Both the position numbers and the translations under genes were made by a program. Below are positions 7,301 through 62,740 of a stretch of 64,000 bases of DNA, one piece after another; position 1 is the first letter of the stretch, and each line of letters opens with the position of its first letter. Below the pieces are notes generated by a model. That model saw nothing but the letters and a program-made list of their open reading frames with translations. It did no database searches and was not told where the DNA came from. The stretch comes from Glandiceps talaboti (Eukaryota; Hemichordata; Enteropneusta; Spengelidae): assembly GCF_964340395.1 (NCBI RefSeq), contig NC_135562.1, positions 1,720,001 to 1,784,000 on the forward strand. Reading direction: 5' to 3'.

Positions 7301-10300
7301 AAAAAAAAATTAAAAAATGAAATAAAAAAAATCTATCTACCCCACCTATTTTAAAATTGAATGTAATCGGAACCACACATTTTTTTATGCCTTATCATCC
7401 CAAAGTAACATACTTATATTTTACTGGCCTATTACTTCTTGGAATCATTAACAATATATTCTCCACCGATCTTAACATATATGTAGTACTATGCTACTAG
7501 ACTGAAAGAATCGTTGCTAAAGTTCCTGTCTTAAGATATATGTAGTACTATACTACACCTCTGAAAGAATCACTGTTAATCAAGTTCCTGTTAAAGGGGT
7601 ATGTGTCAATCCCATGTTATTACATTAGTGTTATCTTAATCAGTATTACATGAGGTAATTCTTTTGTTCTGGACCAACTTTCTCTGAAATCCTGCATTAC
7701 AAACGTTTTTCAAACTTAGATTTTTATCCTAATTCAAAGTGGACCTTTAACTATTACCAGTGTGCCCTCTAAGTCAATTTGATGCACCACTGACACACAC
7801 AATTTCTAGTGACACACCAACATTTGGTTTTCCCCTATCTCCTTCTATGTGGGTAACTCACAAGAAATGCCAGTTTTTGTCATTTTGACTCAGCAAGAAA
7901 ATTTGACTATCATTAGAGGGCACACTGACATCACTGAACAATGAGTGATTTAAGAAGTGTACACAGCAGTGTGCCGTCTAATGATAGACAAATTGTGTTG
8001 TTGCGAGTCAAAATTATAAGAACTGACATTTCTTGTGAGTCACCCACCACACAGTAAGAGATAGGGGAACACCAAAGTTTGGTGCAGCACTAGAAATTGT
8101 GTGTGTTAGTGGCACATCAAATTGGCTTAAAGGCACACTGGTCACCACATAGTTAGTAAGAGATAGGGAAATCAAATTTTGGTGCATCTCTAGAAATTGT
8201 GTCAGTGGCATGTCAAATTGACTTAAATGCACACTGGTACACAACAACTTGTCTGACTCCACTACAATCGGTGAATGAGGTGACTGAGTTAGTCACTAGT
8301 GATGTAGGCAGGCTAATGAGCAAGTGAAAGTCATGAAGTCAAAACTGTGAGAGTTGAAGGTCCACACAAGTGTTTATAAAGTTTTTACCCTCCCTACCCA
8401 CTTCAACCATCGACTTTTAAACCCATTTCTTCCTTAACTATTTCAAGAATTTATCCTTGAAATGAAATATGGTCATTATTTTGTTTACAATTATATGTTA
8501 CCAATTGTGCAGTCTTGCTGCTAGACGTTCGAGCTTTCTTTCGATACTATAAGCGAACGAAGTTCGCAGTGAGGGCTTGCCCGAACAGTCCAGCAAATGT
8601 CATTTTCAGACCGGACATTCCATTAAGATTACGTTAAGCGGTGGGTTGGCCCATGCATGCATATATATACTTTAATATATTCAATCTCTGCATGCAGATG
8701 TTGACAAACACATTACGTCATGTCTTATCGGTTTATGGTAATTGTGTTTAATGAGTGTGTAGACGTTGTCATTCACACATTTCAGTTAACGCATTGGTGG
8801 TTATTTTTACAAGCCTCTCCTTAAGATGTATATGCATGAAAAATTAGCCATTGTCCTCTGTTTGTGCTTGTCACTAATGTGGTTCTCTGATTGGCAGTTA
8901 TTTATATCCTGATGACATTTGCTAGACCTTGGATGTTCCATCCTCGATAGTGATGTTTGGTCGTGTGTTGTATTGTATCAGAAGAACAACCGAGGTCTAG
9001 CAGATAGATTACCAATTGTGATGCTACTGTACACATGTACATTGTATTTTGTTAAAATCAAAATTAAAAATATTTAATTCTTGGTTCATTTTTGTGCGTA
9101 GTGTAAAGAATGGGACATCACCAGTGGAGCTCACTGCAATGCACATCGGAAGGCAGATGTATGGAAAAGTAGACGAAATTCCAGGAAAAGTGGACTTATT
9201 TTGAAACTAAATATAGAAGAAATAACACAGGAAGTGAGAGATGGAGGTATGGAATGTGAATCACTAGATAAAGTGTACAATCCAAACACAAAGGACCATG
9301 GGATTATTTGTAGAATGGCAGATATCAGTTGAACCCTTTCACCTAGTACTATAATTAAAGCTTTGGTGATATGGTTATCAAATTCCTTTCTGGCTTCATC
9401 GATGGCTTTTAATAATGTCACATTGTTTGTAACCACAAATAATCTAGTCTTGTTTACCATATCCTTTCAGGACGGCTATCCTTACAATCACCCCAGATTA
9501 GTTTATGGGACCTCAGTTGTCCTGTGACTCGTAATGACCAGGCCCCTTAGGACACTCATATTTTCCTTGGTAGAATGAAAACCAATATTTGTGAATTATT
9601 AAAATGTAATTGTAGATTTGCAAGTGTGGTATTATTGCTGTAATGAAATATTTGTACCCTTACCTTTATATACATTTATATAGCTGTAAGAGGTCAACAA
9701 TTGGCAGCGGAGGTGTGTAGAGAATATGTACAGTACAGAGAAATAGTATCTCATGTTGAATGTGGTTGTAAATGCCATTCTTATAGTTACCATGGTGACT
9801 GCTATGAATGTGATTGCGGACAAAATGATACAAATCACAAGTAAGTGATACTATGTTACAATTTATATACCATAATTGATACTATGTTACAAATTATATA
9901 CCATAAGTGATATGTTACAAGTTATACCATAAGTGATACTATGTTACAAGTTATATACCATAATTGATACTATGTTACAAGTTGTATACCATAAGTGATA
10001 CTATGTTACAAGTTGTATACTGTAAGTGATACTGTGTCACAAGTTATATAAAGAGATACATTGTACTATGATATTCTAGTGCGTCATTTGAAATTGTGTG
10101 CGTCAGTGGCATATCAAATTGGCGTAGAGGACACGCTGAGCACAAGAAACACTGACCCAAGTCAACAAAACTTTGTCAAGACAAGAATGTTGTGATAGTT
10201 CAGTCAGTTGTTCTACAATACCTTTGGCACAATCTGTGTGTATTGTACAATCTTATTAGTCCCTGCCGGACAAAGTCCGGATGGGGACTTATGGATTGGG

Positions 10301-13300
10301 TTCCGTCTGTCCATCCGTCCGTCCAGAGCTGTTTCTTTGAGATGCCTGGCCCGATTTTTTTCAAACTTGGTACAGGGGCAACATACTATGGCATACATAT
10401 GCACATCTATTGTTTTATGATACGATCCAATATGGCCGCCTAGCAGCCATTTTGTTTGCAAATTTTCCATGTCCAAAGCCATAACTCTGACATGCGAGAA
10501 CAGATCTCATTCAAAGTTGGTATTAGAATAGTGTTCTATGACATACATGTGCATATTCATTTTCGTCGTGATACGATCTATTATGGCAGCCATTTTGTTT
10601 GAGAATTTTCCATGTCCAAAGCCATAACTCAGACATGCTTGAACAGATCTCATTCAAAGTTGGTATTAGAACAGTGTTCTATGACATACATGTGCATATT
10701 CATTGTTGTCGTGATATGATCCAATATGGCTGCCTGGCAGCCATTTTGTTGGCGCAGTTCTCATGTCCAAAGCCATTACTCAGACATGCTTGAACAGAGT
10801 AGTAATATCAAAAACAACCATATATTGAAAATGACAACATAAACTGCCAGTTCCTTAAAACTCAATCATAGCGGGTACTATGTCATTCTCAATGACTTGT
10901 TAAGTACTATTTGTTTTTTCAATAGCTTTGATTCTGTATTGAGGGTGATGATAAAAGCCATCGATGAAGCCAGGAAGGAATTCCTTAACAACCATGCCAC
11001 CAAAGCTTTGATTATCCTGGATGAAATAGTTCAACTTATATCTATTGAAAAACCACCAGACCAAAACAGGTAAAGAAATATTCACTAGATTCACTTCAAA
11101 GACAATTACAGAGACATTTCTTCTGCCTAGCAGTTATTTTATTTATCTGAAGGTGCAATGGTATAATGTGTATTTTATTTCTTAATTTATTTTAGAATTT
11201 GTAAGTAGACTTTTGTATGATTGCCGGTTTGATGTATGAGGACCTCAGTGAAATGAAGCCAACCATTCAATGTATGATTGTTGATGTGATGTATGAGGAC
11301 CTCAGTGAAATGAAGCCAACCATTCAATGTATGATTGTTGATGTGATGTATGAGGGCCTCAGTGAAATGAAGCCAACCCTTCAATGTATGATTGTTGACT
11401 TGATGTATGAGGGCCTCAATGAAATAAAGCCAACCATTCAATGTATGATTGTTGACTTGATGTATGAGGACCTCAGTGAAATGAAGCCAACCATTCAATG
11501 TATGATTGTTGATTTGATGTATGAGGGCCTCAGTGAAATGAAGCCAACTGTCAATGCTTTGCGTTGTTTGTAATGCTTATTGAGTTTACACAGAATAAAG
11601 ATATTTTACAATAATAATGTTTTATGTATATAGCAACCAGGGCAACACCATAACAACCAAACAATTATGTCACATACAAAGACTGAAATAACTTCAGGTA
11701 GATATCAGCCCACCTTGGTGAAAAGGTGTCAGCGGTAACAGCCCCTCTAACAATAATAGCATAATGTGCAGTTGTGCCTCAGTACCATTAGCAGCAATTT
11801 TAAAGCAATTCCTGAATCCTTATTTTCACCATTGCAAGTATTCACCATGATCATCACATTAGACCCTGTTGTATTTTTACAACTTATGCATCTTATATTT
11901 CCAACCTTTGCCATGACGATCATTTTAGACCCTGTGGTATTAGTACTTGTTGTATGATCTGAGCTGGTCTCTGAATTGCTCTTTTTTCTTTTTCCAGCTT
12001 TCGCCATGATGACCCTTTTAAACCCTATGGTATGAGTGCATTTTATGGAAGACGTGAAGTTATGACGCTAATTGATGATTTACTGGTGGACCTGTTTCTT
12101 CAAGACAAAGTAGATGTCTGTTTGAGAAGGAAAGTGATCACTAACATGAAGCTCAACTTGCTGAAAAGCCTGGATTCTTTGAAATGGGAAGAGTGAGTAA
12201 TAATAATAATAATAATAATAAACATTTATATAGTGCCATATATCCACGACAGTGCTCATAGGCACTTCACATTTGGGGGGGGGGGGGGGGGGAGAAAAAA
12301 AGTATGGCTGAAAAAGGTAATTGTCTCGACATTGTCTCAACAAAGGTAAAACGCTATTTTAAAAAAATGGGAACGTTACAATGATTTAAAATGATTTAAA
12401 GAGGTTTTGACTAAATCTAAACAAATGATTGGTAAGAGTAATTGGTAATGATTGGTAAAATAATGTTGGATTATTGCATTAAATTATGTTAGCGTAAGAT
12501 TAGTATATCAATAAACACATGTTGACTGATCGTGAGTGCAACATCATACATGTATGTCTCTTTCCTTGAGGGACTGTGGGTCACCCCAACACAGACCATT
12601 TCTCTTGGGCTTTGCCCTCGTGAAACAGTCTGTGTTGGGGTAACACACAGTCCCTTGAGGAACAGACATATGATGTTTCACGAGCACAATCAGTCAACAT
12701 GTGCTTCGTGCTCATGCAACATCATATGTCACACACCACATCATTTACTGCACTGTATGTGTGCCTCAAAAGTCCTGACTATGTGTACACCCATGGAGGT
12801 ATAATAAGGGGAGATACCTCCATGGTACACCCTATGGTTCCCGTATGACAACAGACAGTGAAGGTGGTTCGAAAAACAATATAGGAATTTGCAAACTTTA
12901 ATAATTATCAACTTTGTTCATTCTAAATCCTTTCTGACACAAGGATGGCAAAGTTTGTCTTCAGAAAATTGCAAAAGCCGAGATGTTTCTGGCTAGCATC
13001 TACTTTGCCAGCACAAGGTGACGCCATTTTCGTCTGCTATGAAAACATGTATGCATGTGCACATGATGTCATCAGTCAGCAGTATTTTGACCAGCAAACA
13101 TCATTTTAAAAATGAGAAACTATAGTGTAAGATTCATACTGTCTTTGTACACATTTACTGGAGATAGTAAATTGACATGACATCATTATTTGATATTTAC
13201 TGGAGATAGTAAATTGACATTAAATTTGTTGTTTGTTTAGTTATCTGTCTTTGACTATGCGTCATTGGAACGATTCCTTGCTGTCTCCTGTACTACATGG

Positions 13301-16300
13301 ACAAAACATAACGGGCAAAAGAGGAGTTGATGTACTCAGAGAAAATATTGGCATTGCCAAGAAGAGGCTGAGAATCTTAGAGGAACAGAAAAAGTAAGAT
13401 TAATGTACAGATTGAGAGATTACTTTATTGCAACTTAGTCAAAACCTTGTGCAATTAGTACTTTTGGCACAGACCTGTAGTGGCACAACTGTTGTATATT
13501 ATATAGTCCTTGGCGAGTACCCATTCTGCAAACTGAGAGTGAGAGACAAGAAATAATGGATTAAATTGATCGCCCTCTCTTTACAAATGCATGGGTTAAA
13601 AGTTAGTCTTTGCCAGAATAAAGAGAACATGAGAAAAATAATCCCAGTGTACTCCCACACACCAAATGGTCAAAGATGTAATATCTCACACTCTTTAGGG
13701 AATGTTTGTGTACATGTAATGATTAATCACTCTTTTGCAGGTACACACCCTACATGTATGTAATCTAGTTTTCAGTATTTGCACTGAAAACTTTCAGTAT
13801 TTGCACTGAAAACTAGATTACATACATGTAGGGTGTACCTAGTAATAGCATTAGCATGTACATGCACCAATACAAGTGATTGCTGGTACCTCACCACAGT
13901 AGTATACATTATTTCTAGATGGCAGCATGCAGCTAGATATGTAAAATTGGCTCAGTTTACGAGAGGAACTGGTGGATTGTATGGATCAAGTTCTTCATTT
14001 GATGATCCGTAAGTATGATCTGTAAACATTGCTGTCAAGTTCTACATTTGATGATCCATAAGTATGATCTGTAAACATTGCTGTCAAGTTCTACATTTGA
14101 TGATCTGTAAGTATGATCTGTAAACATTGCTGTCAAGTTCTACATTTGATGATCCGTAAGTATGATCTGTAAACATTGTTTTCAAGTTCTACATTTGATG
14201 ATCCATAAGTATGATCTGTAAACATTGCTGTCAAGTTCTACATTTGATGATCTGTAAGTATGATCTGTAAACATTGCTGTCAAGTTCTACATTTGATGAT
14301 CCGTAAGTATGATCTGTAAACATTGCTGTCAAGTTCTACATTTGATGATCCATAAGTATGATCTGTAAACATTGCTGTCAAGTTCTACATTTGATGATCT
14401 GTAAGTATGATCTGTAAACATTGCTGTCAAGTTCTACATTTGATGATCCGTAAGTATGATCTGTAAACATTGTTGTCAAGTTCTACATTTGATGATCCGT
14501 AAGTATGATCTGTAAACATTGCAGTCAAGTTCTACATTTGATGATCCGTAAGTATGATCTGTAAACATTGCAGTCAAGTTCTACATTTGATGATCCGTAT
14601 GATCTGTAAACATTGCAGTCAAGTTCTACATTTGATGATCTGTAAGTATGATCTGTAAACATTGCTGTCAAGTTCTACATTTGATGATCCGTAAGTATGA
14701 TCTGTAAACATTGCTGTCAAGTTCTACATTTGATGATCCGTAAGTATGATCTGTAAACATTGCAGTCAAGTTCTACATTTGATGATCTGTAAGTATGATC
14801 TGTAAACATTGCTGTCAAGTTCTACATTTGATGATCTGTAAGTATGATCTGTAAACATTGTTGTCAAGTTCTACATTTGATGATCCGTAAGTATGATCTG
14901 TAAACATTGCTGTCAAGTTCTACATTTGATGATCCGTAAGTATGATCTGTAAACATTGCTGTCAAGTTCTACATTTGATGATCAGTAAGTATGATCTGTA
15001 AACATTGCTGTCAAGTTCTACATTTGATGATCAGTAAGTATGATCTGTAAACATTGTTGTCAAGTTCTACATTTGATGATCCGTAAGTATGATCTGTAAA
15101 CATTGCTGTCAAGTTCTACATTTGATGATCCGTAAGTATGATCTGTAAACATTGCAGTCAAGTTCTACATTTGATGATCCGTAAGTATGATCTGTAAACA
15201 TTGCAGTCAAGTTCCATATTTGATGATCCGTAAGTATGATCTGTAAACATTGCTGTCAAGTTCTACATTTGATGATCCGTAAGTATGATCTGTAAACATT
15301 GCAGTCAAGTTCTACATTTGATGATCCGTAAGTATGATCTGTAAACATTGCAGTCAAGTTCTACATTTGATGATCCGTAAGTATGATCTGTAAACATTGC
15401 TGTCAAGTTCTACATTTGATGATCCGTAAGTATGATCTGTAAACATTGCTGTCAAGTTCTACATTTGATGATCCGTAAGTATGATCTGTAAACATTGCTG
15501 TCAAGTTCTACATTTGATGATCCGTAAGTATGATCTGTAAACATTGCTGTCAAGTTCTACATTTGATGATCCGTAAGTATGATCTGTAAACATTGCTGTC
15601 AAGTTCTACATTTGATGATCAGTAAATACCCTTGTCAGGGCTCGAAATTAATCTTTTCTTTGGTAGTCCTAGTTGGCTACCAATTTCAGAAATTGGTAGC
15701 CCAAGGATTGTGACCTGTGGTCCCATATTCCTGAACTGAAAACAGATTTCCTCTATGGAAATATGTGTGTTATTAAAATACTTTCATGTCCATAGATCTT
15801 TCATCTTCATCACATAATCAGTGGTAGTCTGAGTGGGCTACCAGCTGCAAATTATGGTAGCCCCATAACAAGAATTGGTAGTCTGGACATAGGACTACTG
15901 TTGATTTGAGCCCTGCTTGTTAAGATTGCCGTCAGTCTTCTAGCATGGTGATCAAACACTCCAGTCAATGAGTTGAACCGTAATCCTGCCACAGTCATTA
16001 TCTTACCATGGACTTAACCTGCAAATGTTAATACAGATAAAACATAACTCACACTTCCTATGTTAGGGCATACCATTTTCTACTCACACTTTAATAAATA
16101 TAGTGGTATAGTATAGTAAGTTTGAAGTGTTTGTGCCTTTCAAAGTGATTAGTTGCTTATGTGTAGTGTTGTTATAGCATAAGATGTCAGTGTCCATGTT
16201 AGAAAGAATACAGAAATTACAAGAGGGCTCAGTGTCCCTGTTACCTTGTTCAGAGAGAACACAGAAATTACAAGAGTGCTCAGTGTCCCTGTTACCTTGT

Positions 16301-19300
16301 TCAGAGAGAACACAGAAATAACAAGAGGGCTCAGTGTCCCTGTTACCTTGTTCAGAGAGAACACAGAAATAACAAGAGGACTCAGTGACCCTGTTACCTT
16401 GTTCAGAGAGAACACAGAAATTACAAGAGTGCTCAGTGTCCCTGTTACCTTGTTCAGAGAGAACACAGAAATTACAAGAGTGCTCAGTGTCCCTGTTACC
16501 TTGTTCAGAGAGAACACAGAAATAACAAGAGGGCTCAGTGTCCCTGTTACCTTGTTCAGAGAGAACACAGAAATAACAAGAGGACTCAGTGACCCTGTTA
16601 CCTTGTTCAGAGAGAACACAGAAATTACAAGAGTGCTCAGTGTCCCTGTTACCTTGTTCAGAGAGAACACAGAAATTACAAGAGTGCTCAGTGTCCCTGT
16701 TACCTTGTTCAGAGAGAACTCAGAAATTACAAGAGTGCTCAGTGTCCCTGTTACCTTGTTCAGTGAGAACACAGAAATTACAAGAGGGCTCAGTGTCCCT
16801 GTTACCTTGTTCAGAGAGAACTCAGAAATTACAAGAGGGCTCAGTGTCCCTGTTACCTTGTTCAGTGAGAACATAGAAATTACAAGAGTGCTCAGTGTCC
16901 CTGTTACCTTGTTCAGAGAGAACTCAGAAATTACAAGAGGGCTCAGTGTCCCTGTTACCTTGTTCAGAGAGAACTCAGAAATTACAAGAGGGCTCAGTGT
17001 CCCTGTTACCTTGTTCAGTGAGAACACAGAAATTACAAGAGGGCTCAGTGTCCCTGTTACCTTGTTCAGTGAGAACACAGAAATTACAAGAGTGCTCAGT
17101 GTCCCTGTTACCTTGTTCAGAGAGAACACAGAAATTACAAGAGGGCTCAGTACCCCTGTTACCTTGTTCAGAGAGAACTCAGAAATTACAAGAGTGCTCA
17201 GTGACCCTGTTACCTTGTTCAGAGAGAACACAGAAATTACAAGAGGGCTCAGTACCCCTGTTACCTTGTTCAGAGAGAACACAGAAATTACAAGAGGGCT
17301 CAGTGTCCCTGTTACCTTGTTCAGAGAGAACTCAGAAATTACAAGAGTGCTCAGTGTCCCTGTTACCTTGTTCAGAGAGAACTCAGAAATTACAAGAGTG
17401 CTCAGTGTCCCTGTTACCTTGTTCAGAGAGAACACAGAAATTACAAGAGTGGTCAGTGTCCCTGTTACCTTGTTCAGAGAGAACTCAGAAATTACAAGAG
17501 TGCTCAGTGTCCCTGTTACCTTGTTCAGTGAGAACACAGAAATTACAAGAGGGCTCAGTACCCCTGTTACCTTGTTCAGAGAGAACTCAGAAATTACAAG
17601 AGGGCTCAGTGTCCCTGTTACCTTGTTCAGAGAGAACTCAGAAATTACAAGAGTGCTCAGTGTCCCTGTTACCTTGTTCAGTGAGAACACAGAAATTACA
17701 AGAGGGCTCAGTACCCCTGTTACCTTGTTCAGAGAGAACTCAGAAATTACAAGAGGACTCAGTGTCCCTGTTTTAATATTATAAGATATCTTTTATCTCT
17801 GTTACCTTTTCTAAGGATTAACAGTTTGATTTGCTTTCATTTTCAACAGAGAAATTCGAGAACGGCTACCAAAGTATCTTATTTACATAGGCAAGGTGGA
17901 TGAAGCACTCTTAAAACTCGCTCAAGAAAGTGTAGGCCAGGCGACAAATAAATACAAAAATTCAAATTCTCTCCTGTCGAGAATTTCAGACAAAAATTTA
18001 CTGGTTTTACTAAAACTATTTTGTGGAGAGACACCAATCGATCAGTCAAGTTCAGGTATTTATACTTTTTGTTTCATATACTTCTATGAACATGTTTTAT
18101 TTTGATTTTGAACTTGTTGGTCATTCGAATAAAATATTTGATTGTAGAAATTGAAATAAAAATTCAACCAAAAACTGTTGTTTACTTGCTTTGCAAGTAG
18201 TTCCAAACTCACAACGTAAATGATTTACCTAGTTTGTTGACAAATCTAAGTTATTGAACCATTCATAATAAATAACACCTGAAGAAGGTGGACTGATTTA
18301 TCAAAATTTGTTTGTTTGCAGGGATCAAACAGAAAATACTGGATGATGTGCATGTATTTCAACTCTGTCTAAGAGCATATGCTGTAAACCATTGTGTGTG
18401 TTCAAGTGTAAGTATTGGTATAATAAACTAACCACTGTAAACCATTGTGTGTGTTCAAGTGTAAGTATTGGGGTAATAAACTAACCACTGTAAACCATTG
18501 TGTGTGTTCAAGTGTAAGTATTGGGGTAACAAACTAACCACTGTAAACCACTGTGTCTGTTCAAGTGTAAGTATTGGGATAATAAACTAACCACTGTAAA
18601 CCACTGTGTGTGTTCAAGTGTAAGTATTGGGGTAATAAACTAACCACTGTAAACCATTGTGTATGTTCAAGTGTAAGTATTGGGGTAATAAACTAACCAC
18701 TGTAAACCATTGTGTGTGTGTTCAAGTGTAAGTATTGGGATAACAAACTAACCACTGTAAACCATTGTGTGTGTTCAAGTGTAAGTATTGGGATAACAAA
18801 CTAACCACTGTAAACCATTGTGTGTGTTCAAGTGTAAGTATTGGGGTAACAAACTAACCACTGTAAACTATTGTGTGTGTTCAAGTGTAAGTATTGGGAT
18901 AACAAACTAACCACTGTAAACCATTGTGTGTGTTCAAGTGTAAGTATTGGGATAACAAACTAACCACTGTAAACCATTGTGTGTGTTCAAGTGTAAGTAT
19001 TGGGGTAATAAACTAACCACTGTAAACCATTGTGTGTGTTCAAGTGTAAGTATTGGGGTAACAAACTAACCATTGTAAACCATTGTGTGTGTTCAAGTGT
19101 AAGTATTGGTGTAATAAACTAACCATTGTAAACCATTGTGTGTGTTCAAGTGTAAGTATTGGGGTAATAAACTAACCACTGTAAACCATTGTATGTGTTC
19201 AAGTGTAAGTATTGGGGTAACAAACTAACCATTGTAAACCATTGTGTGTGTTCAAGTGTAAGTATTGGTGTAATAAACTAACCACTGTAAACCATTGTAT

Positions 19301-22300
19301 GTGTTCAAGTGTAAGTATTGGGGTAACAAACTAACCATTGTAAACCATTGTGTGTGTTCAAGTGTAAGTATTGGGGTAATAAACTAACCACTGTAAACTA
19401 TTGTGTGTGTTCAAGTGTAAGTATTGGGGTAACAAACTAACCACTGTAAACTATTGTGTGTGTTCAAGTGTAAGTATTGGGGTAATAAACTAACCACTGT
19501 AAACCATTGTATGTGTTCAAGTGTAAGTATTGGGATAACAAACTAACCACTGTAAACCATTGTATGTGTTCAAGTGTAAGTATTGGTGTAACAAACTAAC
19601 CACTGTAAACCATTGTGTGTGTTCAAGTGTAAGTATTGGGGTAACAAACTAACCACTGTAAACCATTGTGTGTGTTCAAGTGTAAGTATTGGTGTAACAA
19701 ACTAACCACTGTAAACCATTGTGTGTGTTCAAGTGTAAGTATTGGGGTAACAAACTAACCACTGTAAACCATTGTGTGTGTTCAAGTGTAAGTATTGGGA
19801 TAACAAACTAACCACTGTAAACCATTGTGTGTGTTTAAGTGTAAGTATTGGGGTAATAAACTAACCACTGTAAACCATCATCATTTCAGGCAAGTGTACT
19901 GGAATGGATAATTTCAAAATTTCTAAAGTCTAAAGTTGACGAACCTGGTATGGAAACTTACAAGGTAAGATAACTGGTAATAATACTTGTTTATGTTAGT
20001 AACTGTGATAAAACTCATGACACAAGGGGGCAAGTGTGATGTACTTGTAGTATTGCATGAGAGCTTGCAGTGTTCTCTGCATCCATACTTTCACAATCGA
20101 CAAAGAGGTTACAAACATTGAAATGACAAATCAGTGAGTGCGAGTGTGATGTACTTGTAGTATTTGCATGAGAGCTTGCAGTGTTCTCTGCATCTGTACT
20201 TTCACAATCGACAAAGAGGTTACAAACATTGAAATGACAAATCAATGAGTGCAAGCGTGGAGTTTTGTATGAAAGCTTGCAGTTTCATGATGGCCATATT
20301 TTCATGAGTATAGCAAGTGAAAGTACAGTAGAAAACTCTGCAAGTATGAGTACAAATACTCCTGACTATCGACGCTGGAACTCAAGTATGAGTACAAATA
20401 CTCCTGACTATCGAAGCTGGAACTCAAGTGTGAGTACAAATACTCCTGACTATCCACGCTGGAACTCAAGTATGAGTACAAATACTCCTGACTATCCACG
20501 CTGGAACTCAAGTATGAGTACAAATACTCCTGACTATCCACGCTGGAACTCAAGCAGCACAGGAGTCTGGTATTATTACATATCTGACCCACTATACAAG
20601 CTTAACGCTTTTACAGTTAAATTGGATTGATAGCTAGATTATAAAAGCCATTCACTATTAGGTTACTGATAGAGGATGAATTATTGATATGAGATTTCTT
20701 TTCCATTCTTCAGAACTATTCCGCTGTTTCTGAAATGATAATAAAGTCCAGCAGAAAAAGTGCAAATCCACAAATACATGTTGAAGTGAGCATTCTTTGT
20801 CAAGTTAGAATGATGTGTATGGCCACTGTACTTGCTGATGCTATATCCAAAGAAAATGTTACACCAGTGACTGGTATATTGAATGAATTTAAACCTGTCT
20901 TCCAGGTAAGTTATGGTGAACATACTTATTTCAGTTGATGCACTACTAAAGTAGCCTCCAATAAGGGGGGGGGGGGGGGGGGGGCTATAGAAATGACCAA
21001 CCAATGTCTGTCCTGTGTCTGACACTAGTCAGTCATTTCACCTACAACAATTTCAACTAAACCTTTTCAGTCACTAAAGTATACACATTCATATTTTACT
21101 AGAATAGTTTAAATGAGGTTTTATGGATATTTGTAAGTATTTTCATTTGAGTAAAAAAAAGTTGCAAACTCAGCTAGTGCAACTGTAATAAATTTACCAA
21201 TTCGATGAACATTAAAGGAAAATTAAAATTACAGAGTTATGTTTCGTTTTTCCCCCTCAGAAACACCCATGGGTTTTGAAACATTTCTTGAACAGTGCAT
21301 CAATACAATGTAAGATTGAAAGCCCTGCAGTGTATGGTCTCCTGAAGGATGAGTACATCACTAAACATGGCTTGGAAGGACTCCATAGTCATGTCATTGA
21401 AAGGTAAATACTGTGTTGTCATGGTTATGAGGTGACTAGTAATGTTAATCGGAAACACTCCTCCAGGAAATAAAGGTATTTTTATAAACTCGGGGGAGAG
21501 TCATGTCGACATGTCACCTAAACTTCTTTATGCTAGTAGCAACCAACAATATATTCACTGGAAATGGTGAAAATATCAGTAATTAGACACTGTACATGTC
21601 ATTTAGAGGTCTGTTTTATCTCTACATAGTATAAAGGTGAAATTGTAATTCATTTGTGTGCTGACCAAAAAATCATTTTAAACAGATAACTTGTACCATT
21701 TTATGTGTAAGGCTACCCAAGTATGTTTACTAGGTTATTGAGTACCACTGTTCAGGGTGTGTACAATATTATGTCCTAGTTGCAGCTAGAGTTGCTTTAA
21801 TTATTGTTTTATATAAGCATTTTCACTACAGTAAAATAGCTTATAGTGTGTATACTTTGACATGAATTGTTTTTTTTTTTAAAAATCAATGGTACTATTT
21901 TCCAGGGTAATTGTCAGGCAGTCTATGAGAAGTGGTTGTGAACTGTTAGAAACCGTTTTAGTACAAGCATCAGGAGGCAAACAAGGTAGGTGTTTCTATA
22001 AATGTCATCAACTGGCGACCTTTGACATTTGACCTCAGAAAGTACTGACATAATTTACATATAGTGAATGGTATGTAAATATCTACAAACAGGCATGCTG
22101 ATAACTGCCGTTGGGATATGACTGAATTAATTTATAGCTGTTTGCTACCATTAGAAGCAGTTTGTGAAACATCAAAGCAATATCACAGTTGGCAATGTAA
22201 ACAGGTTAATGTTAGATTCTGGTGATGATGACCAAGTGGTTTTTGGACCCAAGAGCACTGTTTGAATCCTGTGGATCTCTTAGCACCATGATGCACTGTG

Positions 22301-24284
22301 TATGCAACCTTGTCCAAAATCATGTATTAATTTGTATGTGTAGAATGCTATGTACACTCATGTGATAGTCACCTTGAATTCATGCATAAAAGCTGTTTAT
22401 TTGTCAACTCTTAAAGGCTTAGACTGTAAGATACAAAGTGTCATTCCGCCCTCACCGGCCTCCTCTCTCTTCTCTAGTAGGGGTTAACCGATGTGTGAGG
22501 GTACCCAGTCACGTAGTACCTTACAGATTATTGAAGGCTTTGACTAAGATACATCGTGTCGTTCTGCCCTCACTGGCCTCTCTCTCTTCTCTAGTAGGGG
22601 TTCAACGATGTTTGAGGGCACCCCGTCACGTAGTACCTTACAGACTATTAAAAGCTCAGTTCAGGTTAGGATTAAAGTTAGGTGTGATAAACTGTTACCT
22701 GGCAGAGCTGTAGAAAAAGTTAGTCAAGAATGAAACTGATCCTATGTAATAAGCCATTTTTTGTCTCGCAGCAGATTTTACGAGATCCTGTGTGAGCCAT
22801 TGCATCCATAGCAACCACATAAGGGTGGTCAGGCTGGAAGTGTCAAATGCTTAGCAACACTTGTTCTCTGTGTTATCGCACATAGCCAGGGCAAAAGCTT
22901 GACCGCGATCACATGTTTGACAACCATTGTTGCTCTGTATATTTGCACATTTCATGAGATCTGCAATGAGACATAACATCCCTTATTCTCATGGCTCCTC
23001 TGATAAGATTACACTAATGCAAAAACGTATGGCATTGATACCTTGGTCTTTAGTCTTCTGTAAAATAGAACACAGTGATACAGGTCTTCCCATTGCCTAA
23101 TGATAAACAAGTTATTTGAAACCTAATGAATACACAATAATCCAATAAGTGACCACTGAAGTGAACCTATTGGAGAGATAAATATTTCATATTCAAATGT
23201 ATTTTCTCTTTTATGTTTTTATTTTCCAAATTAAGCTTCAGAAATTAATTACAATGCCATTCCTAAAATCACCAAAGACCTTGTGCTTTGGTATGCTATG
23301 GGCATGGCAAGACGGATTCCCAGCGCTACATTTAGTGAGTATGGGTCGTCAAGTGTTGATCTAAAAGCCATGTCAAGATTTCTTAATTTGGTAAGTTACA
23401 TTTATTCTTTGCGCTAAGTTTGTTTGATAAGTCATAGCAAGACTCCTTAAGCTGGTAAGTTATCTAATCTTTTGTGCTAAGTTTGATTGATAAGTCATAG
23501 CAAGACTCCTTAAGCTGGTAAGTTATCTAATCTTTGTGCTAAGTTTGATTGATAAGTCATAGCAAGACTCCTTAAGCTAGTAAGTTATCTAATCTTTTGT
23601 GCTAAGTTTGATTGATAAGTCATAGCAAGACTCCTTAAGCCGGTAAGTTATCTAATCTTTGTGCTAAGTTTGATTGATTAGTCAGCAAGACTCCTTAAGC
23701 TGGTAAGTTATCTAATCTTTGTGCTAAGTTTGGTTGATAAGTCATAGCAAGACTCCTTGAGCTGGTAAGTTATCTAATCTTTGTGCTAAGTTTGATTGAT
23801 AAGTCATAGCAAGATTCCTTAAGCTGGTAAGTTATCTAATCTTTGTGCCAGGTTTGATTCAAAAGTCATAGCAAGACTCCTTAAGTTAGTAATTAGTGTA
23901 TCTAGAAGCAGAAAATTTGATTTAAGATTTTCCAGTGACACCCTTGGAAGTGAAGTATACAGGTTTGCCTTGTAAGTTGTATTCTTGTAACAAAACCTTA
24001 TCATCTTTACTGAAAGCAAACAGTTGCAATGATGGAAAGGTCTACTAGATTTAAAATGTTGAACATATTGAGTAACAAGATGTATTTGAGTATATTGCTA
24101 TGTTATCTGTTTCAGATTTTATGTCTTGGACCGATACATGCTAAGAATGATAGAGATTTGTTAGTGTTTATAGCTGTCAGAAGATTTGAAGCCATACCAT
24201 CCGTGGAGGACTTAGAAATTGTTAAAAGTTTCAGTGGGTAGGACGTGTTCAATTACCTCAAAAGACAACACACCGTCTACTTAG

Positions 24285-24347
<63 letters not shown>

Positions 24348-26991
24348 TGTGTCTGTGTCTGTGTCTGTCTGTGAATGTATGTGTGTGTCTGTTTCTGTGT
24401 CTATGTCTGTCTGTGTATGTATGTGTGTGTCTGTCTGTCTGTGTTTGTGTGTCTCTGTGTATGTATGTGTGTGTGTCTCTGTCTGTTTCTGTGTGTATGT
24501 ATGTCTGCCTGTGTCTGTATGTATGTTATCATTTATCATAAATTCTGCCATTAAACAGTTTGAGACGCTTTCCTACACTGGTGTTCCCCATTTACCATTG
24601 ATTCTGTTTAATTCCCATAACAGAACTGAGTGGCCCAAATACAGTAAACAGTGTCTTGAAGCCATTGACAAGGTTATAACAGAGTAAGTATACACTGAGA
24701 AATAAAATCAAGCATTCTTAAAAGTTTTCTTGTATAATTGAGGTAAAAAATCACATTAATTGGGCTATGTAGGTTAAAGAAAATTGATTAGATAGTTTGC
24801 TGTTTGAAAAATAAGAGATAGTTTAATAAGCAACTTTAAAAAAATATTATTTTGAGAGAAAATTTGTGATAACGGACTCAATGAGATCAGGATTTCTCCT
24901 ACAACGCGTACTGACTTCTTACTAAATGAATGAAATTTCTCATTTCTGTTTAGTCGCCATACACAACACACTGTCAACAGTATGGTTTTGCTTGATCTCT
25001 ACTTTAAACTGAATGGACATGACAGAGTGTATAAACTACTAGAATCACAACGCTGTAGAGGAGTTACAAGTCATGTAATAGCTGGGAAAAGTACCGTACC
25101 ATTCACCAGCGTACTCACCCAATACCTCACAAAGGTAAGTTTGTGTACTGATGGTATGTTTTGTGTACAGAGGGGGATGAACACTACATGATACTAGTAC
25201 ATGAACTTTGTATTCAAGGTGATTAGGCTCTTCGTTTCAATGCTTCTCCTCCCCATGAATTTCACATATTGCCCTTGTAGTTGAGCTTTCAGTTTTCTAA
25301 GATAGACACAAAACAAAACTATTGCCGCCATATATTGATACAACAGTGATAAGCTATTGAATGGATGTCGGTTTAATTTAATCTCTGTAGGGAGGTGTCT
25401 CTGAAACTAATACTAATTGATTAGTATTTATATTATCACATTTCCCATGATGCAACATTCAACATGGTGGGTTTGCAAGTTCCCTATTGGTGCTATTACA
25501 GGTACAGAGAAATAGCTTGGGTTAGTAGGATGATGATTTGTTTATATTCTCTGTTTTATTCTTGCATGACAGATTTCAAGTCTCCTAGAAGAATGTACTC
25601 CTACAGATGCAAGATTGTTTTTTAGTACTGCTCATCCATGGTTGGTCAGTGAATCGTATGGGCCGATTTTATGCAAATTATGTGAAAATGTAAGTATCCA
25701 TGATTTGTCAATGAATCGTATGGGCCGATTTTATGCAAATTATGTGACAATGTAAGTGTCCATGGTTGGTCAATGAATCGTATGGGCCGATTTTATGCAA
25801 ATTATGTGACTGTGTAAGTGTCCATGATTTGTCAATGAATCGTATGGGCCGATTTTATGCAAATTATGTGACAGTGTAAGTATCCATGATTGGTCAATGA
25901 ATCGTATGGGCCTATTTTATGCAAATTATGTGACTGTAAGTGTCCATGATTTGTCAATGAATCGTATGGGCCGATTTTATGCAAATTATGTGACAGTGTA
26001 AGTATCCATGATTGGTCAATGAATCGTATGGGCCTATTTTATGCAAATTATGTGACTGTGTAAGTATCAATGATTTGTCAGTGAATCGTATGGGCCTATT
26101 TTATGCAAATTATGTGACAATGATGTTGTCAATGGTGTTGTAAAGACCAAAAATGTTTATCAGTTTGGTAGATCATAATGATGTACATGGGTTATAATGC
26201 ACTAGCCGTTCAAACATTGAATTGACAGGCCTCACCAGAATGGCAAACACCATAGTTACAGCTGGCCATTCGGTGGCCGGAGGGAGGCTATCAACATCAG
26301 ACACTACGATGTCAAGATAAACAGATACAGAAGGATTGAAGTATCAAATGTCTGTGCAGTCAACTGATCATGAACTGCTTGTGTGTTATAAGCTGTGTAA
26401 GTCATTTGGAATCACAATGGTTAACAGTTAACGTGTCTGACTTGGAATCACAACGGGTAACAGTTAACTTATCTGACGTGAAAATTGCAAGTTGTCATTT
26501 CGATCGTTTCCACTGTCGTTTGTTTCTGGCTAAAGTCCTTGGGTAAGATTTGAACCACAGTTGTACCACAGTAAACCCAACTGTATAATTGGGGACCTGG
26601 TAGGACAGAGGTTGCAATGTGAATGCTTTAATTCCATGCACTTACCAAGACTGCAATACATTATATGCTCCCCAGTGAGTTGAGAAAGTGCCATTTTAGG
26701 TCCATGCCAGGGGAAATGAAAGCACTTTGAGTACAGTGTTGAAAGTTTTATAACGAACAAACATTAGTATTGTATTAGTTATAACAATGTTGTCCAAAAA
26801 GTACAAGTTTTATTTTATTTCTCACCTAGGTATGTGTTGGCTTGATTCGTTTATGGGAAGTGGTTGGAAAGATTGATAGCTCAATATTAGTGGCTGTTCT
26901 AACTGAGGCTGTACAAAAAATGCAACAAGTAAGTCAATTAGTTAATCAATCAATCAATTAGATAATCAATCAATCAATTAGTCAATTAGTT

Positions 26992-32084: not shown

Positions 32085-33145
32085 TTAATTTAAAACTGAC
32101 ATTTTCAGAGCCGATTTTTGTTGTCACTCACTTGTCTGAAAAACTTTGCACATGTGCACATTAATGTTCATTGTTACCAAAACATACCAGTCAAATAATG
32201 AATGAAAAGTGTTATGTATGTACACATTAATATTCACTGTTACCAAAACATACCAGTCGCATAACAAATGAAAAGTGTTATGTATGTACACATTAATGCT
32301 CAGTTACCAAAACATACCAGTCAAATAATGAATGAAAAGTGTTATGTATGACTGTGTGTACATTAATATTCTTTACTAAAACATACCACTCACCTACTGA
32401 ATAAGGTTGTGTATGTGCACAGTAATGTTATTTATGACCAAAACATACCACTCACCTACTGAATAAGGTTGTGTATGTGCACAGTAATGTTATTTATGAC
32501 CAAAACATACCACTCATACCACTCACCTACTAAATATGGTGTGTATGTGCACAGTAATGTTATTTATGACCAAAACATACCACTCATACCACTCACCTAC
32601 TAAATATGGTGTGTATGTGCACAGTAATGTTCTTTATTAACCAAACATAATTTTTGTAGCTGCATAACATATGAAGTGTTATGTGCACATTATTTTTCTG
32701 TTGCCAAAATGTATAATGTAATAAAAAAAAAGCTGTGTGTATCCACATAAATCTTCTGTTACCAAATGTGACTGCTACATAATGTAATGAAAAGAATTCA
32801 TCAAAGTTGACTCTTGTGTTTGGAAAGACTCAGGTATTTCTTGTTTTGAGTAGAGACTTCTATGGTTGACTAGAATTGAAGACCATAAAAGACATTTATA
32901 TTAATTTTTGCAATATTTTCAGGTGCTAAATGAATCCACCACATCATCCTTTTGACACTTTTTGTAGTAGTTTTTGTACAAAGGAACAAAACTTTTACGA
33001 ACCATTTTTCAGAAATTGTTAATTACGAGCTAATATTTGAGATGTGGTGACAGATGAAACAAACTTGAGTGATTGGTTTTCAAATATGTTTGTTTTGATT
33101 TTTAGCCAAGAGGTAAACTCACTTTTGCTTGATCCTTAATAAACA
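32085..33145 (+). other. Probable 3' UTR of the large gene with a tandem repeat
   Basis: About 65-bp degenerate repeats run from about 32150 to 32700 (landmark TTACCAAAACATACCAGTC). Candidate poly(A) signals are AATAAA at 32720-32725 and 33138-33143. No coding sequence is seen. Confidence 0.5.
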
Positions 33146-60600: not shown

Positions 60601-60975
60601 AATCTCAGCTAGAAATTTTTCAGTGTCAGAAGGTTGACTGCCTTGCCATTTCAAAGGATCTACTGACGCCATGTCACTTGTATCTCCATCTGAAATACAA
60701 AACATTACATTTGATGAAATTGGATCTATTGATGCCATGTCACTTGTATCTCCATCTGAAATACAAAACATTACATTTGATGAAATTGGATCTATTGATG
60801 CCATGTCACTTGTATCTCCATCTGAAATACAAAACATTACATTTGATATTTGATATTTGAAATTGTATTTAGATACTACTACAAAAGATGAATACTGATG
60901 GGTAATATCTTTACGATTTTTCCATTCTTGTAAAGTATTTTCACTTACTCTGTGCATGTAGCTGGTAAGGTGGAT

Positions 60976-61037
<62 letters not shown>

Positions 61038-62740
61038 AATATATGTACATTTTTATTAGACTGTAATATACATTATTTTTCAACATCTCCTTACTTTTAG
61101 ACTTTTCTCTCCTTTCCACTGTATCTTCTTTGTCTTCTTCACTGGAACTATTACTACTGCCATCCTCTGAAAAATAGAATGTTTTTTTTTTTTGAAATTC
61201 ATCAAGACAAAGATGATCAACTTAACCTCTCTAAAGAACTGTACTTCAATGTATGATCTAATCAACTATACAATCATACTTTAACTCTATGCAATTACTA
61301 CTACAGTAAATAGTTTACAAATAAGAGGTCTTTTTATCCTCACTGTAAGAAACTGATTGAAATCATCTCATGAACAATACTGCTTGCACAACTTAGACAG
61401 AATACCATTGTACACAAAATTGGATTATCACACAGTGTCAATTTTACAGAAATTTGCTTTTTGGATAAACCTCTGTAAAACAACAGAAGCCCATGCTGTG
61501 TGAGTTCCAGTGTGGGTACTCAGGGATATTTGCACTTGTGCTTGCAGTGTTTTCTATTGCACTTTCACTCACTACCCTCATGAAAGTACAGCCACAGAGA
61601 ACACTGGAAACACTCATGCAAATATCCAAGTACGCCACACTTGCGCTTGAGTGTCATAGGGTTCTGTCTCTTGCATGTCATGGGGTTCTGTCTCTTGTGT
61701 GTCAAAGGGTTCTGTCTCTTGTGTATCACAGGATTTTGTCACAGTATAGTCTCACCTGAATTGAGTTGTTTGACTAATGAAGACATAGCATTAGTAACAG
61801 AATCAGCTGCTACTAGGAGATCATTACGTAAATTCCTAGACTGTCCTTGTCCAAAGGCTTGTTTAACATCACCACCTACACCAGATAATGAATCCCCTGG
61901 TGTTGATGGAGCTGACTTGGGAGCTGGAGTTGTGGTTGTGATCGTTGTTGTAGCTGGTGCTGGTCCTGTTACTGGTGGGGAATGTGGAACCATGTTTGAT
62001 GGCCGTGGACTACTATTTGGGGTTGACTTGGGTGATCCGCCATGGCTCTGTCAAAAAACAACAATTTTAAATTTGAATTACTCAAATACAAGACTCTATT
62101 TTACAAACTGAATTACGTTGGCAGAATCCAAGCATAAACATTCATACAACAAATACTGTATCAGGCAGTAGTCCATCAGCCATGCTAAAAAAAGGTCTAC
62201 CTTCAGTAACTTCATGAGGCCCTCTAACTACATCACTAAAGCTTACCTTTAATAATTTCATGAGACCCTCTAACTGCACCATTAATTCTCTTCTACTGTC
62301 TTGCAGAGCTGCCATTCTTAGTTCAAGTTCATCTTTACGTTGCCGTAGCAATCGTAATTCAGCTAATAACGTAGGATTTCTTTCCATACTTGATGTTTTC
62401 ACCGCTTCATCATGTTCTTGTCGTAATCGTTGAATCTCTCGCATGATTTCTCTGCAATAACAAGAATGGTAAAATGTGATCTTCTTCATAGATTAAAGAC
62501 TACCTCAAGTGATTTTAAGTGTTCATGTCACATTACATGTTTTGAAATATTACAGAAAGTGATTTCGTCAGTCATGAATTTGACCTTTGACCCCACTTTG
62601 ACCGCACAGACTTTTGTAAGGTCAAACTTTGACAAACTTTGACCCACAACCTACCTATTTTTAGCTTCTAACTTAGCAATCAATTCCCTTTGTTCTTTGT
62701 TGCCATCTAAACTAGCTGGGATTTCATTTCCTTGTGTTTG
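56035..62740 (-). CDS. DTNA/DTNB-like dystrobrevin: Dystrobrevin, C-terminal part (last 7 coding exons, 371 aa in window)
   Basis: Exons in order of transcription: 62740-62655, 62451-62247, 62047-61756, 61166-61095, 60689-60545, 59494-59317, 56172-56035. The 1116 nt stay in frame to TAA. Landmarks conserved in animal dystrobrevins are [19 protein letters not shown] with [16 protein letters not shown] (second coiled coil) and [10 protein letters not shown]...[14 protein letters not shown]. Dystrobrevin is a cytoplasmic scaffold of the dystrophin complex that pairs with dystrophin through this coiled coil and binds syntrophin. After the conserved block comes an acidic tail ending in about eight SY-x-x-TDD repeats. 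The EF-hand, ZZ and syntrophin-binding parts must lie beyond position 64000. Introns here are 200-3100 bp. Confidence 0.93.
56820..57080. repeat. 42-bp tandem repeat, about 6 copies
   Basis: The unit is ACTTTTACAACAGTACATCT plus TTCAAATGTA and GCGCCCTCAA. It lies in the last dystrobrevin intron. Confidence 0.9.
57454..58212 (+). CDS. Weak candidate nested two-exon gene in the last dystrobrevin intron
   Basis: Exon A, 57454-57532, starts at AGGATGG and reads [17 protein letters not shown] onward, ending phase 1 at GTATGT. Exon B, 58064-58212, follows TCATTTCCAG, joins in frame ([14 protein letters not shown]...) and stops at TGA/TAA-bounded 58212. The joined product would be 75 residues. The intron between holds a (CA)n run. 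No family is recognised and no other support exists; it may be chance. Confidence 0.2.
57560..57662. repeat. (CA)n microsatellite
   Basis: CA dinucleotides with CAGA and CAAA interruptions. Open frames here are repeat translations. Confidence 0.95.
59317..59494 (-). CDS. DTNA/DTNB-like dystrobrevin: Dystrobrevin exon with SYIxTDD repeats
   Basis: The protein reads as a run of acidic units: [51 protein letters not shown]. The last exon (56172-56035) continues with EYVRTDDDE and SYIRTDDEE, then ends QRWISR. The spacing of Tyr and Thr followed by Asp is suited to phosphorylation. Tyr phosphorylation is known for the long tail of vertebrate alpha-dystrobrevin-1, but these exact sites are not tested. 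Confidence 0.85.
60545..60689 (-). CDS. DTNA/DTNB-like dystrobrevin: Dystrobrevin exon behind a triplicated 3' splice site
   Basis: The shortest form starts at 60689 after TGTATTTCAG and reads [16 protein letters not shown] to SEDPER. Identical acceptors lie 66 and 132 nt upstream (exon starts 60755 and 60821). All three keep the frame and add 22 or 44 residues ([20 protein letters not shown] plus SD per copy) without a stop. Which acceptor is used cannot be told from DNA alone. Confidence 0.82.
60663..60840 (-). repeat. 66-bp acceptor-spanning tandem repeat, about 2.7 copies
   Basis: Each unit carries the pyrimidine-rich end TTTTGTATTTCAG and the exon start ATGGAGATACAAGTGACATG. The intronic copies are almost identical to each other. 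The true exon copy differs at a few bases (GCGTCAGTAGATCC against GCATCAATAGATCC). Confidence 0.95.
60976..61036. repeat. (GT)n microsatellite
   Basis: About 29 GT units in the dystrobrevin intron between 60689 and 61095. Confidence 0.95.
61480..61580 (-). repeat. Single-copy relative of the 42-bp element at 20310-20560
   Basis: Read on the minus strand it shares AGTGAAAGT, GAAAAC, CTGCAAG and CTGGAACTCA, in the same order, with the element in intron 13 of the large gene. Confidence 0.6.
61756..62047 (-). CDS. DTNA/DTNB-like dystrobrevin: Dystrobrevin exon: Pro/Thr-rich linker and conserved C-terminal block
   Basis: It begins [17 protein letters not shown], passes through a Thr/Pro-rich stretch and ends with the diagnostic [18 protein letters not shown] and [18 protein letters not shown] blocks. 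Its donor is GTGAGAC at 61755. Four degenerate repeats of TTCTGTCTCTTG type (61655-61745) start about 10 bp downstream of the donor in the reading direction. Confidence 0.93.
62201..62280 (-). repeat. 46-bp donor-spanning tandem duplication in dystrobrevin
   Basis: The exon end GTTAGAGGGTCTCATGAAAT plus TATTAAAG|GTAAGC is followed 46 nt on by GTTAGAGGGCCTCATGAAGT plus TACTGAAG|GTAGAC. Identity is about 80% by eye. Because 46 is not a multiple of 3, the second donor would break the frame. Confidence 0.85.
62247..62451 (-). CDS. DTNA/DTNB-like dystrobrevin: Dystrobrevin exon with leucine-rich coiled coil
   Basis: This exon encodes [17 protein letters not shown] through EGLMKLLK in a heptad pattern. 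Its acceptor (TTATTGCAG) precedes 62451 in the reading direction. The main donor is GTAAGC at 62246-62241. A second, tandem-copied donor lies 46 nt further on, at 62200, and using it would shift the frame. Confidence 0.92.

What the first reader, a model, noticed from the sequence alone, without database searches (positions are those of the whole stretch)
13986..26125. Four introns of one gene begin with minisatellites that copy the exon end and the splice donor
Arrays at 13986-15622 (49 bp, about 33 copies), 18381-19877 (53 bp, about 28), 23370-23890 (62/63 bp, about 8) and 25645-26125 (62 bp, about 8) each have a unit that straddles the exon/intron border. The GTAAGT donor is therefore present many times in a row. 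Chance placement of four unrelated units exactly on donors in one gene is very unlikely. Splice-spanning 'mirage minisatellites' are known to me from the amphioxus Adh locus. The density here suggests a general process, such as nicking or slippage at donors, or repeats tolerated because an exact copy preserves splicing.
Basis: partly seen in the sequence, partly recalled or inferred. Interest (0 to 1): 0.92.

Follow-up and report, generated by a model that had tools for sequence, protein, structure and literature searches.

The report
Repeated splice donors in acorn worm
In an acorn worm, four introns of one gene begin with many tandem copies of the exon end and its splice signal, a pattern described before in amphioxus, which leaves the splicing machinery dozens of near-identical decoy sites to pass over.

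Summary
The window is from the hemichordate Glandiceps talaboti: LOC144445791 (1048 aa) maps exactly in 24 coding exons. Four arrays (49 bp x33.6, 53 bp x28.2, 62 bp x8.3, 62 bp x7.9) start inside an exon and run through its donor. Of 77 full units 72 keep GTAAGT; without the four real donors that leaves 68 decoys. Use of any of the 73 downstream copies would bring a stop within 25 codons. Array 2 makes up 1471 of 1482 bp of its intron.
By anatomy these are 'mirage' minisatellites, known from amphioxus (PMC3087553); my searches listed none for a hemichordate. Acceptors are hit too, and dystrobrevin nearby has one of each.
A stronger, post hoc bias: 14 of 32 intronic arrays begin across a donor or within 70 bp after it, 4.8 expected (0 of 5000). 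Best reading: slippage duplications across exon-intron borders, tolerated because the most upstream donor is used. A donor-linked mutational bias remains open.

The parts
13919..14008 (+). exon 10 of LOC144445791; its last 23 nt are the exon part of the first unit of array 1
   Evidence: exon map; units
13986..15625 (+). array 1: 49 bp unit, 33.6 copies, exon tail 23 nt + donor hexamer + intron 20 nt; 29 of 33 full units keep GTAAGT; 147 bp three-unit pattern in the first nine units
14009..14014 (+). authentic donor of intron 10 (TCC|GTAAGT)
18322..18407 (+). exon 12; last 26 nt are the exon part of array 2
18382..19878 (+). array 2: 53 bp unit, 28.2 copies; fills 1471 of 1482 bp of intron 12; 28 of 28 units keep GTAAGT
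19879..19889 (+). the only 11 nt of intron 12 outside array 2 (CATCATTTCAG acceptor); a branch-point-like CTAAC is supplied by the repeat unit
   Evidence: sequence; exon map; branch-point consensus recalled, not tested
23236..23390 (+). exon 17; about its last 40 nt match the repeat unit of array 3, diverged
23374..23892 (+). array 3: 60-64 bp units, 8; 8 of 8 keep GTAAGT; first unit diverged from the rest
25573..25689 (+). exon 21; last 56 nt are the exon part of array 4
25634..26119 (+). array 4: 62 bp unit = 56 nt exon + GTAAGT, 7.9 copies; 7 of 8 keep GTAAGT
9841..10050 (+). intron 6: 31 bp array starting 1 bp after the first base of the donor; 5 of 6 intronic copies have lost the G of GT; exon part not demonstrable (693 of 2000 shuffles as good)
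11841..12033 (+). intron 7/exon 8: old acceptor-spanning duplication; copy 11898-11940 35 of 43 identical with AG changed to AA, second weaker copy 11841-11874
60656..60847 (-). dystrobrevin: acceptor mirage, 66 bp x2.9, three copies with intact TTTCAG and exon start; real intron ends at 60690
62191..62275 (-). dystrobrevin: donor-spanning duplication (exon end to 62247, donor at 62246; copy at 62229-62191)

Best explanation
These are mirage-type minisatellites in a hemichordate. Slippage or unequal exchange made a short tandem duplication across an exon-intron border, and repeated expansion grew it to 8-33 copies inside the intron. Shown: in each array only the first unit overlaps coding sequence, the further copies lie downstream of the authentic donor, and the intronic copies vary like ordinary minisatellites with no sign of selection for or against their donor hexamer. 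Inferred: the arrays are tolerated because the spliceosome uses the most upstream donor (the first one transcribed, joined to a real exon), so copies downstream of it are passive intron. Rare use of a decoy is removed as a frameshifted or stop-containing message. Because the first unit is protected as coding sequence plus donor, an array that shrinks to one copy still leaves a seed for regrowth.
For: Exact exon map. Arrays and units. Only the first unit of each array overlaps an exon. 73 of 73 downstream copies give a stop 1-25 codons after the junction if used. Donor columns vary as other columns do, Fisher P=1.0. A three-unit 147 bp pattern in array 1 and shared variants along array 2 fit slippage or unequal exchange. 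In dystrobrevin the duplicated exon end ([10 protein letters not shown]) is present in Priapulus P0004 and in the unnamed P0003, so there the copying went from exon to intron. The four sense-strand unit pairs, folded as DNA, are not more stable than shuffles (118-200 of 200 fold at least as well). Amphioxus mirages are reported not to disturb regular splicing (PMC3087553, passages; PMC3902484, passages).
Against: No RNA data were seen; whether P0001 rests on RNA-seq or on prediction alone is not known, so use of the first donor is inferred from the reading frame. Local strength cannot explain the choice: in array 2 all 27 downstream donors have the same 9-mer as the real one, in array 3 five of seven copies score 9.9 against 8.5 for the real one, and in array 1 the real donor scores only 0.8 while another GT 4 nt downstream of it, present in 32 units, scores 6.3. 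SRSF1 is reported to favour the intron-proximal of two competing donors (PMC5585400, passages), the opposite of what is needed here. The excess of array starts near donors (14 against 4.8) is not predicted by tolerance alone, since intron interiors should be at least as tolerant.
Confidence: 0.72

Rival explanations
1. A mutational bias: tandem duplication starts preferentially at or just downstream of 5' splice sites (for example through transcription-linked strand exposure or pausing there), and straddling arrays are one outcome of it.
For: 14 of 32 intronic arrays begin across a donor or within 70 bp after it against 4.77 expected, 0 of 5000 permutations; acceptor side 4 against 4.87. The bias is also seen, weakly, in the two other genes alone (4 of 11 against 1.46, P=0.042). 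It survives keeping the last 40 bp of introns free (14 against 5.05, 0 of 5000) and restriction to units of 20 bp or more (9 of 22 against 3.50, P=0.003) (all).
Against: The 70 bp limit was chosen after the distances had been seen. One window, 40 introns, arrays merged by hand from TRF rows; 5 of the 14 have units under 20 bp. No fold excess. Acceptors are also hit.
Confidence: 0.3
2. Chance: a repeat-rich genome with short introns puts arrays over exon edges now and then, and only the harmless placements survive.
For: 9227 bp of arrays in a gene span of 28634 bp. With free placement up to one unit or 60 bp into exons, 1.15-1.6 straddled donors are expected and P is only 0.019-0.065. Exon-containing copies at 5 of 40 donors and 2 of 40 acceptors are too few to show a difference between the two ends.
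Against: The donor-proximal excess is stronger than straddling alone. Seven of 80 junctions carry exon-containing copies.
Confidence: 0.2
3. Intron birth by tandem duplication of an AG|GT-containing exon piece, so that donor and acceptor come from neighbouring repeat units.
For: Intron 12 is almost wholly repeat, and its last partial unit runs to 11 nt before the acceptor. A similar origin was proposed for amphioxus globin introns (PMC3087553, passages).
Against: The acceptor junctions of introns 10, 12, 17 and 21 have no significant copy in their own intron (33, 13, 64 and 200 of 200 shuffles as good).
Confidence: 0.06
4. The repeated donors do something: tandem U1 binding sites that protect the transcript from early polyadenylation or strengthen commitment of the intron.
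For: 68 intact GTAAGT decoys on the sense strand of one gene; in arrays 2, 3 and 4 no donor column varies among the intronic copies counted (27, 7 and 6, the last copy of array 4 left out).
Against: Over the four arrays the donor hexamer is no better conserved than the rest of the unit (P=1.0). In intron 6 five of six copies have lost the G of GT.
Confidence: 0.05

Closest known systems
Mirage minisatellites of amphioxus (Adh3, globins BflGb6 and BflGb9; PMC3087553, passages read; the original Adh paper, Nucl Acids Res 2002, is not held and was not read)
   Same: Tandem repeats whose unit spans an exon-intron border and, in many copies, carries splice signals; both ends of introns affected; concerted evolution inside the array.
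   Different: Hemichordate instead of cephalochordate; four donor arrays in one gene with up to 33 copies and one intron made 99% of repeat. In BflGb6 units are 150-160 bp with 3 or 6 copies, in BflGb9 157 bp, in Adh3 10-72 bp as given in that paper. Length and somatic instability could not be tested here.
Tandem repeats overlapping splice sites in amphioxus PGBD5, with mention of troponin C (PMC3902484, passages read)
   Same: 60 and 108 bp repeats that abut or overlap splice sites; the authors judge that they do not interfere with splicing.
   Different: Imperfect, 2-7 copies, other phylum; one annotation takes part of the repeats as an exon.
Intron gain by tandem genomic duplication (potato RdRp, PMC4974935; listing and start of abstract only)
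   Same: Tandem duplication linked to intron structure.
   Different: Here the acceptors carry no significant copy of the unit and there is no evidence that the introns are new.

Membership tests
mirage minisatellite | tandem unit spans an exon-intron border | tested here: met
   four donors inside arrays
mirage minisatellite | copies carry splice signals | tested here: met
   72 of 77 units with GTAAGT
mirage minisatellite | both 5' and 3' intron ends can be affected | tested here: met
   acceptor mirage in dystrobrevin and old acceptor copy in intron 7
mirage minisatellite | edge units excluded from homogenisation | tested here: inconclusive
   first unit diverged in array 3 (mean 11.3 differences against 2.9) and mildly in array 4 (5.5 against 3.4), hardly in arrays 1 and 2
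mirage minisatellite | regular splicing undisturbed | not testable with these tools
   no RNA data; reading frame only
mirage minisatellite | length polymorphism and somatic instability | not testable with these tools
   one assembly only
intron gain by AGGT tandem duplication | acceptor junction is a copy of the same unit | tested here: not met
   33, 13, 64 and 200 of 200 shuffles as good for introns 10, 12, 17 and 21
Introner-type mobile intron | same sequence in several introns | tested here: inconclusive
   pieces of arrays 1-4 match only their own arrays in the window at E<=1e-3; the genome could not be searched

The most novel reading that the evidence does not exclude
In this genome 5' splice sites are hot spots of tandem duplication, so that introns grow from their donor end; splicing copes by a strict rule of position (most upstream donor), even when 27 downstream donors have the identical 9-mer. 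The protected exon copy acts as a permanent seed, making exon-intron borders self-renewing minisatellite loci across deuterostomes.
Probability: 0.22. Interest if true: 0.78.

Novelty: new member of a known kind. Interest (0 to 1): 0.55.

Why it matters
How the spliceosome chooses among competing donors is an old question. Here nature offers one authentic donor followed by 27 donors with the same 9-mer and duplicated exon context, and any wrong choice would break the reading frame. RNA-seq from this species would read the selection rule directly. It also suggests that mirage repeats are not confined to amphioxus but occur in another deuterostome phylum and may be a route of intron growth.

Tried and rejected
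Rejected: hairpin-driven expansion. Rejected: selection to keep or to lose the decoy donors. Rejected for introns 6 and 22: counting them as exon-containing mirages, although the whole-junction test was significant, because the exon part alone is not (693 and 449 of 2000). Rejected: donor-only action, because acceptors are also hit. Rejected: intron birth from AGGT duplication for these four introns. A first cutting of the arrays into units mis-cut arrays 1 and 3 and was replaced.

Dropped before counting: overlapping TRF rows were merged by hand; the coding repeat 59389-59498 in dystrobrevin and the rows outside the three gene models were left out of the permutations. Of the 24 introns of the first gene 23 come from P0001; intron 24 and its acceptor at 29475 are my model. 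The last three introns of the transporter and the six dystrobrevin introns are also my frame-consistent model; dystrobrevin relatives support the protein. No Glandiceps dystrobrevin was among the 120 relatives listed of 1967, and the search took only proteins of 0.55 to 1.75 times the query length.
Full report
Identity of the window. A protein spliced from window exons finds a single relative at E<=0.001 among 7999 scored candidates, 97% identical over 100% of the query: uncharacterized protein LOC144445791 of Glandiceps talaboti, 1048 aa, an acorn worm (Hemichordata, Enteropneusta, Spengelidae). A search for exact spliced matches gives one and only one GT-AG solution, 24 coding exons from 840 to 28569 on the + strand, which reproduces the protein letter for letter. 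My own model had the four critical exon ends before the protein was known. The next gene, LOC144445792, is listed with the Pfam domain PF07690, which I know as the major facilitator transporters (P0002, + strand, from 40922); beyond it lies a dystrobrevin on the - strand (best relatives 54% identical over 97% of the query).

The arrays. TRF gives 49 bp x33.6, 53 bp x28.2, 62 bp x8.3 and 62 bp x7.9. Cut into units in register with the exon, they hold 33, 28, 8 and 8 units; GTAAGT is intact in 29, 28, 8 and 7 of them, 72 of 77. Without the four authentic donors that leaves 68 decoys. The whole + strand of the window has 99 GTAAGT. The exon part is 23 nt (1 difference from the intronic consensus), 26 nt (0), 17 nt (4) and 56 nt (5). 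In array 3 the exon copy reaches about 40 nt upstream and is diverged (0 of 2000 shuffles as good), so this array looks older. Array 2 occupies all of intron 12 except 11 nt at the acceptor; its unit carries CTAAC, which may have to serve as branch point (the consensus is recalled, not tested).

Consequence of a wrong choice. With any of the 73 downstream copies as donor, the reading frame hits a stop: 1 codon after the junction for array 1, 7 for array 2, 8 for array 3, and 21 or 25 for array 4. In array 2 all 27 downstream donors have the authentic 9-mer, in array 1 20, in array 3 none, in array 4 one. With a small matrix made from the 36 other donors of the window, five of seven copies in array 3 score 9.9 against 8.5 for the real donor; in array 1 the real donor scores 0.8, and a GT 4 nt further on, present in 32 units, scores 6.3. 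Local donor strength cannot pick the right one; position must, or else wrong products are removed. For two competing sites SRSF1 favours the intron-proximal and hnRNP A1 the intron-distal donor (PMC5585400, passages), so these introns need strong intron-distal choice.

Is it more than chance? The exon-end copies as such are beyond doubt. Whether donors are targeted is a separate question. Re-placing the 21 arrays of the gene at random in its introns, with leave to enter a flanking exon by up to one unit (at most 60 bp), gives 1.15 straddled donors on average; 4 were seen (P=0.019) and no straddled acceptor (expected 1.16). With three genes, 40 introns and 32 arrays P=0.031. The window was chosen because of these arrays, so these values flatter the case. 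The stronger signal is the start of arrays: 14 of 32 begin across a donor or within 70 bp after it, 4.77 expected, 0 of 5000 permutations reach it; the acceptor side has 4 against 4.87. The 70 bp limit was set after I had seen the distances; with 20 bp it is 8 against 2.49, P=0.0014. In the two other genes alone it is 4 of 11 against 1.46, P=0.042, and with 20 bp 2 against 0.60, P=0.12. Counting only units of 20 bp or more it is 9 of 22 against 3.50, P=0.003. Keeping the last 40 bp of each intron free does not remove it.

Beyond donors and beyond this gene. A test free of TRF compares each junction (40 nt) with the rest of its own intron. In LOC144445791 the donors of introns 6, 10, 12, 17, 21 and 22 and the acceptor of intron 7 exceed all 200 shuffles (7 of 48 junctions). 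In the transporter 0 of 20 junctions do (the nearest misses, one donor with 1 of 200 and one acceptor with 3 of 200); in dystrobrevin one donor (score 38, z 10) and one acceptor (score 75, z 24) of 12 do. With the exon part alone (25 nt), introns 6 and 22 fail (693 and 449 of 2000) and the rest hold (11 of 2000 for the intron 7 acceptor, 37 of 2000 for array 3, 0 for the other five). So 5 of 40 donors and 2 of 40 acceptors carry copies with exon sequence. The old acceptor copy of intron 7 has lost its AG (35 of 43 identical), the fresh copies in dystrobrevin have not.

Mechanism. Shared variants of neighbouring or regularly spaced units, a three-unit pattern of 147 bp at the start of array 1, and occasional indels are what slippage and unequal exchange produce. 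Donor columns vary like the rest (4 of 24 against 33 of 202, P=1.0), though the four variable ones are all in array 1; there is no sign that decoys are kept or purged. The four sense-strand unit pairs, folded as DNA, are not more stable than shuffles. The copying went from exon to intron at least in dystrobrevin, where the duplicated exon end is present in Priapulus (P0004).

What is known. [quoted passage not shown] Similar repeats are described for amphioxus PGBD5, with mention of troponin C (PMC3902484, passages). Searches for 'mirage minisatellite' (none), minisatellite with amphioxus and intron (3 papers), Glandiceps with genome, minisatellite with splice terms (none, 25 listed of 144) and hemichordate with minisatellite listed no report for a hemichordate that I could see from titles, starts of abstracts and the passages read; most subscription papers are not in that library. 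By anatomy this is the same kind, in another phylum and denser.

Limits. No RNA data, one assembly, one window; the whole genome could not be searched. Use of the upstream donor, instability and genome-wide excess remain untested.

Noticed in passing
16197-17772: A second large array (51 bp x30.9) in intron 10 does not straddle a splice site; because 51 is a multiple of 3 it is open over 533 aa on + and 547 aa on -, probably meaningless.
   Followed up: partly
20030-20580 and 61474-61647: A dispersed element shared by intron 13 of LOC144445791 and a dystrobrevin intron (75-83% over pieces of 36-128 bp, all but one piece in inverted orientation), with internal 42 bp and 111 bp tandem repeats in the first.
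   Followed up: partly
13741-13840: Inverted repeat with arms of about 40 bp by eye in intron 9, like a small fold-back element (seen, not measured).
   Followed up: no
29475-32087: An 869-aa open exon in phase with exon 24; the NCBI protein P0001 ends at exon 24, so there may be a longer isoform.
   Followed up: partly
59389-59498: Coding tandem repeat in dystrobrevin (TDD..SYIR motif), begins near an exon start; similar motifs occur in Priapulus P0004, so it is old.
   Followed up: partly
13986-14426: Higher-order pattern of three units (147 bp) in the first nine units of array 1, with CCGTAAG, CCATAAG and CTGTAAG in turn.
   Followed up: partly
9841-10050: Array abutting the donor of intron 6 in which 5 of 6 intronic copies lack the G of GT; the exon part is not demonstrable.
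   Followed up: yes
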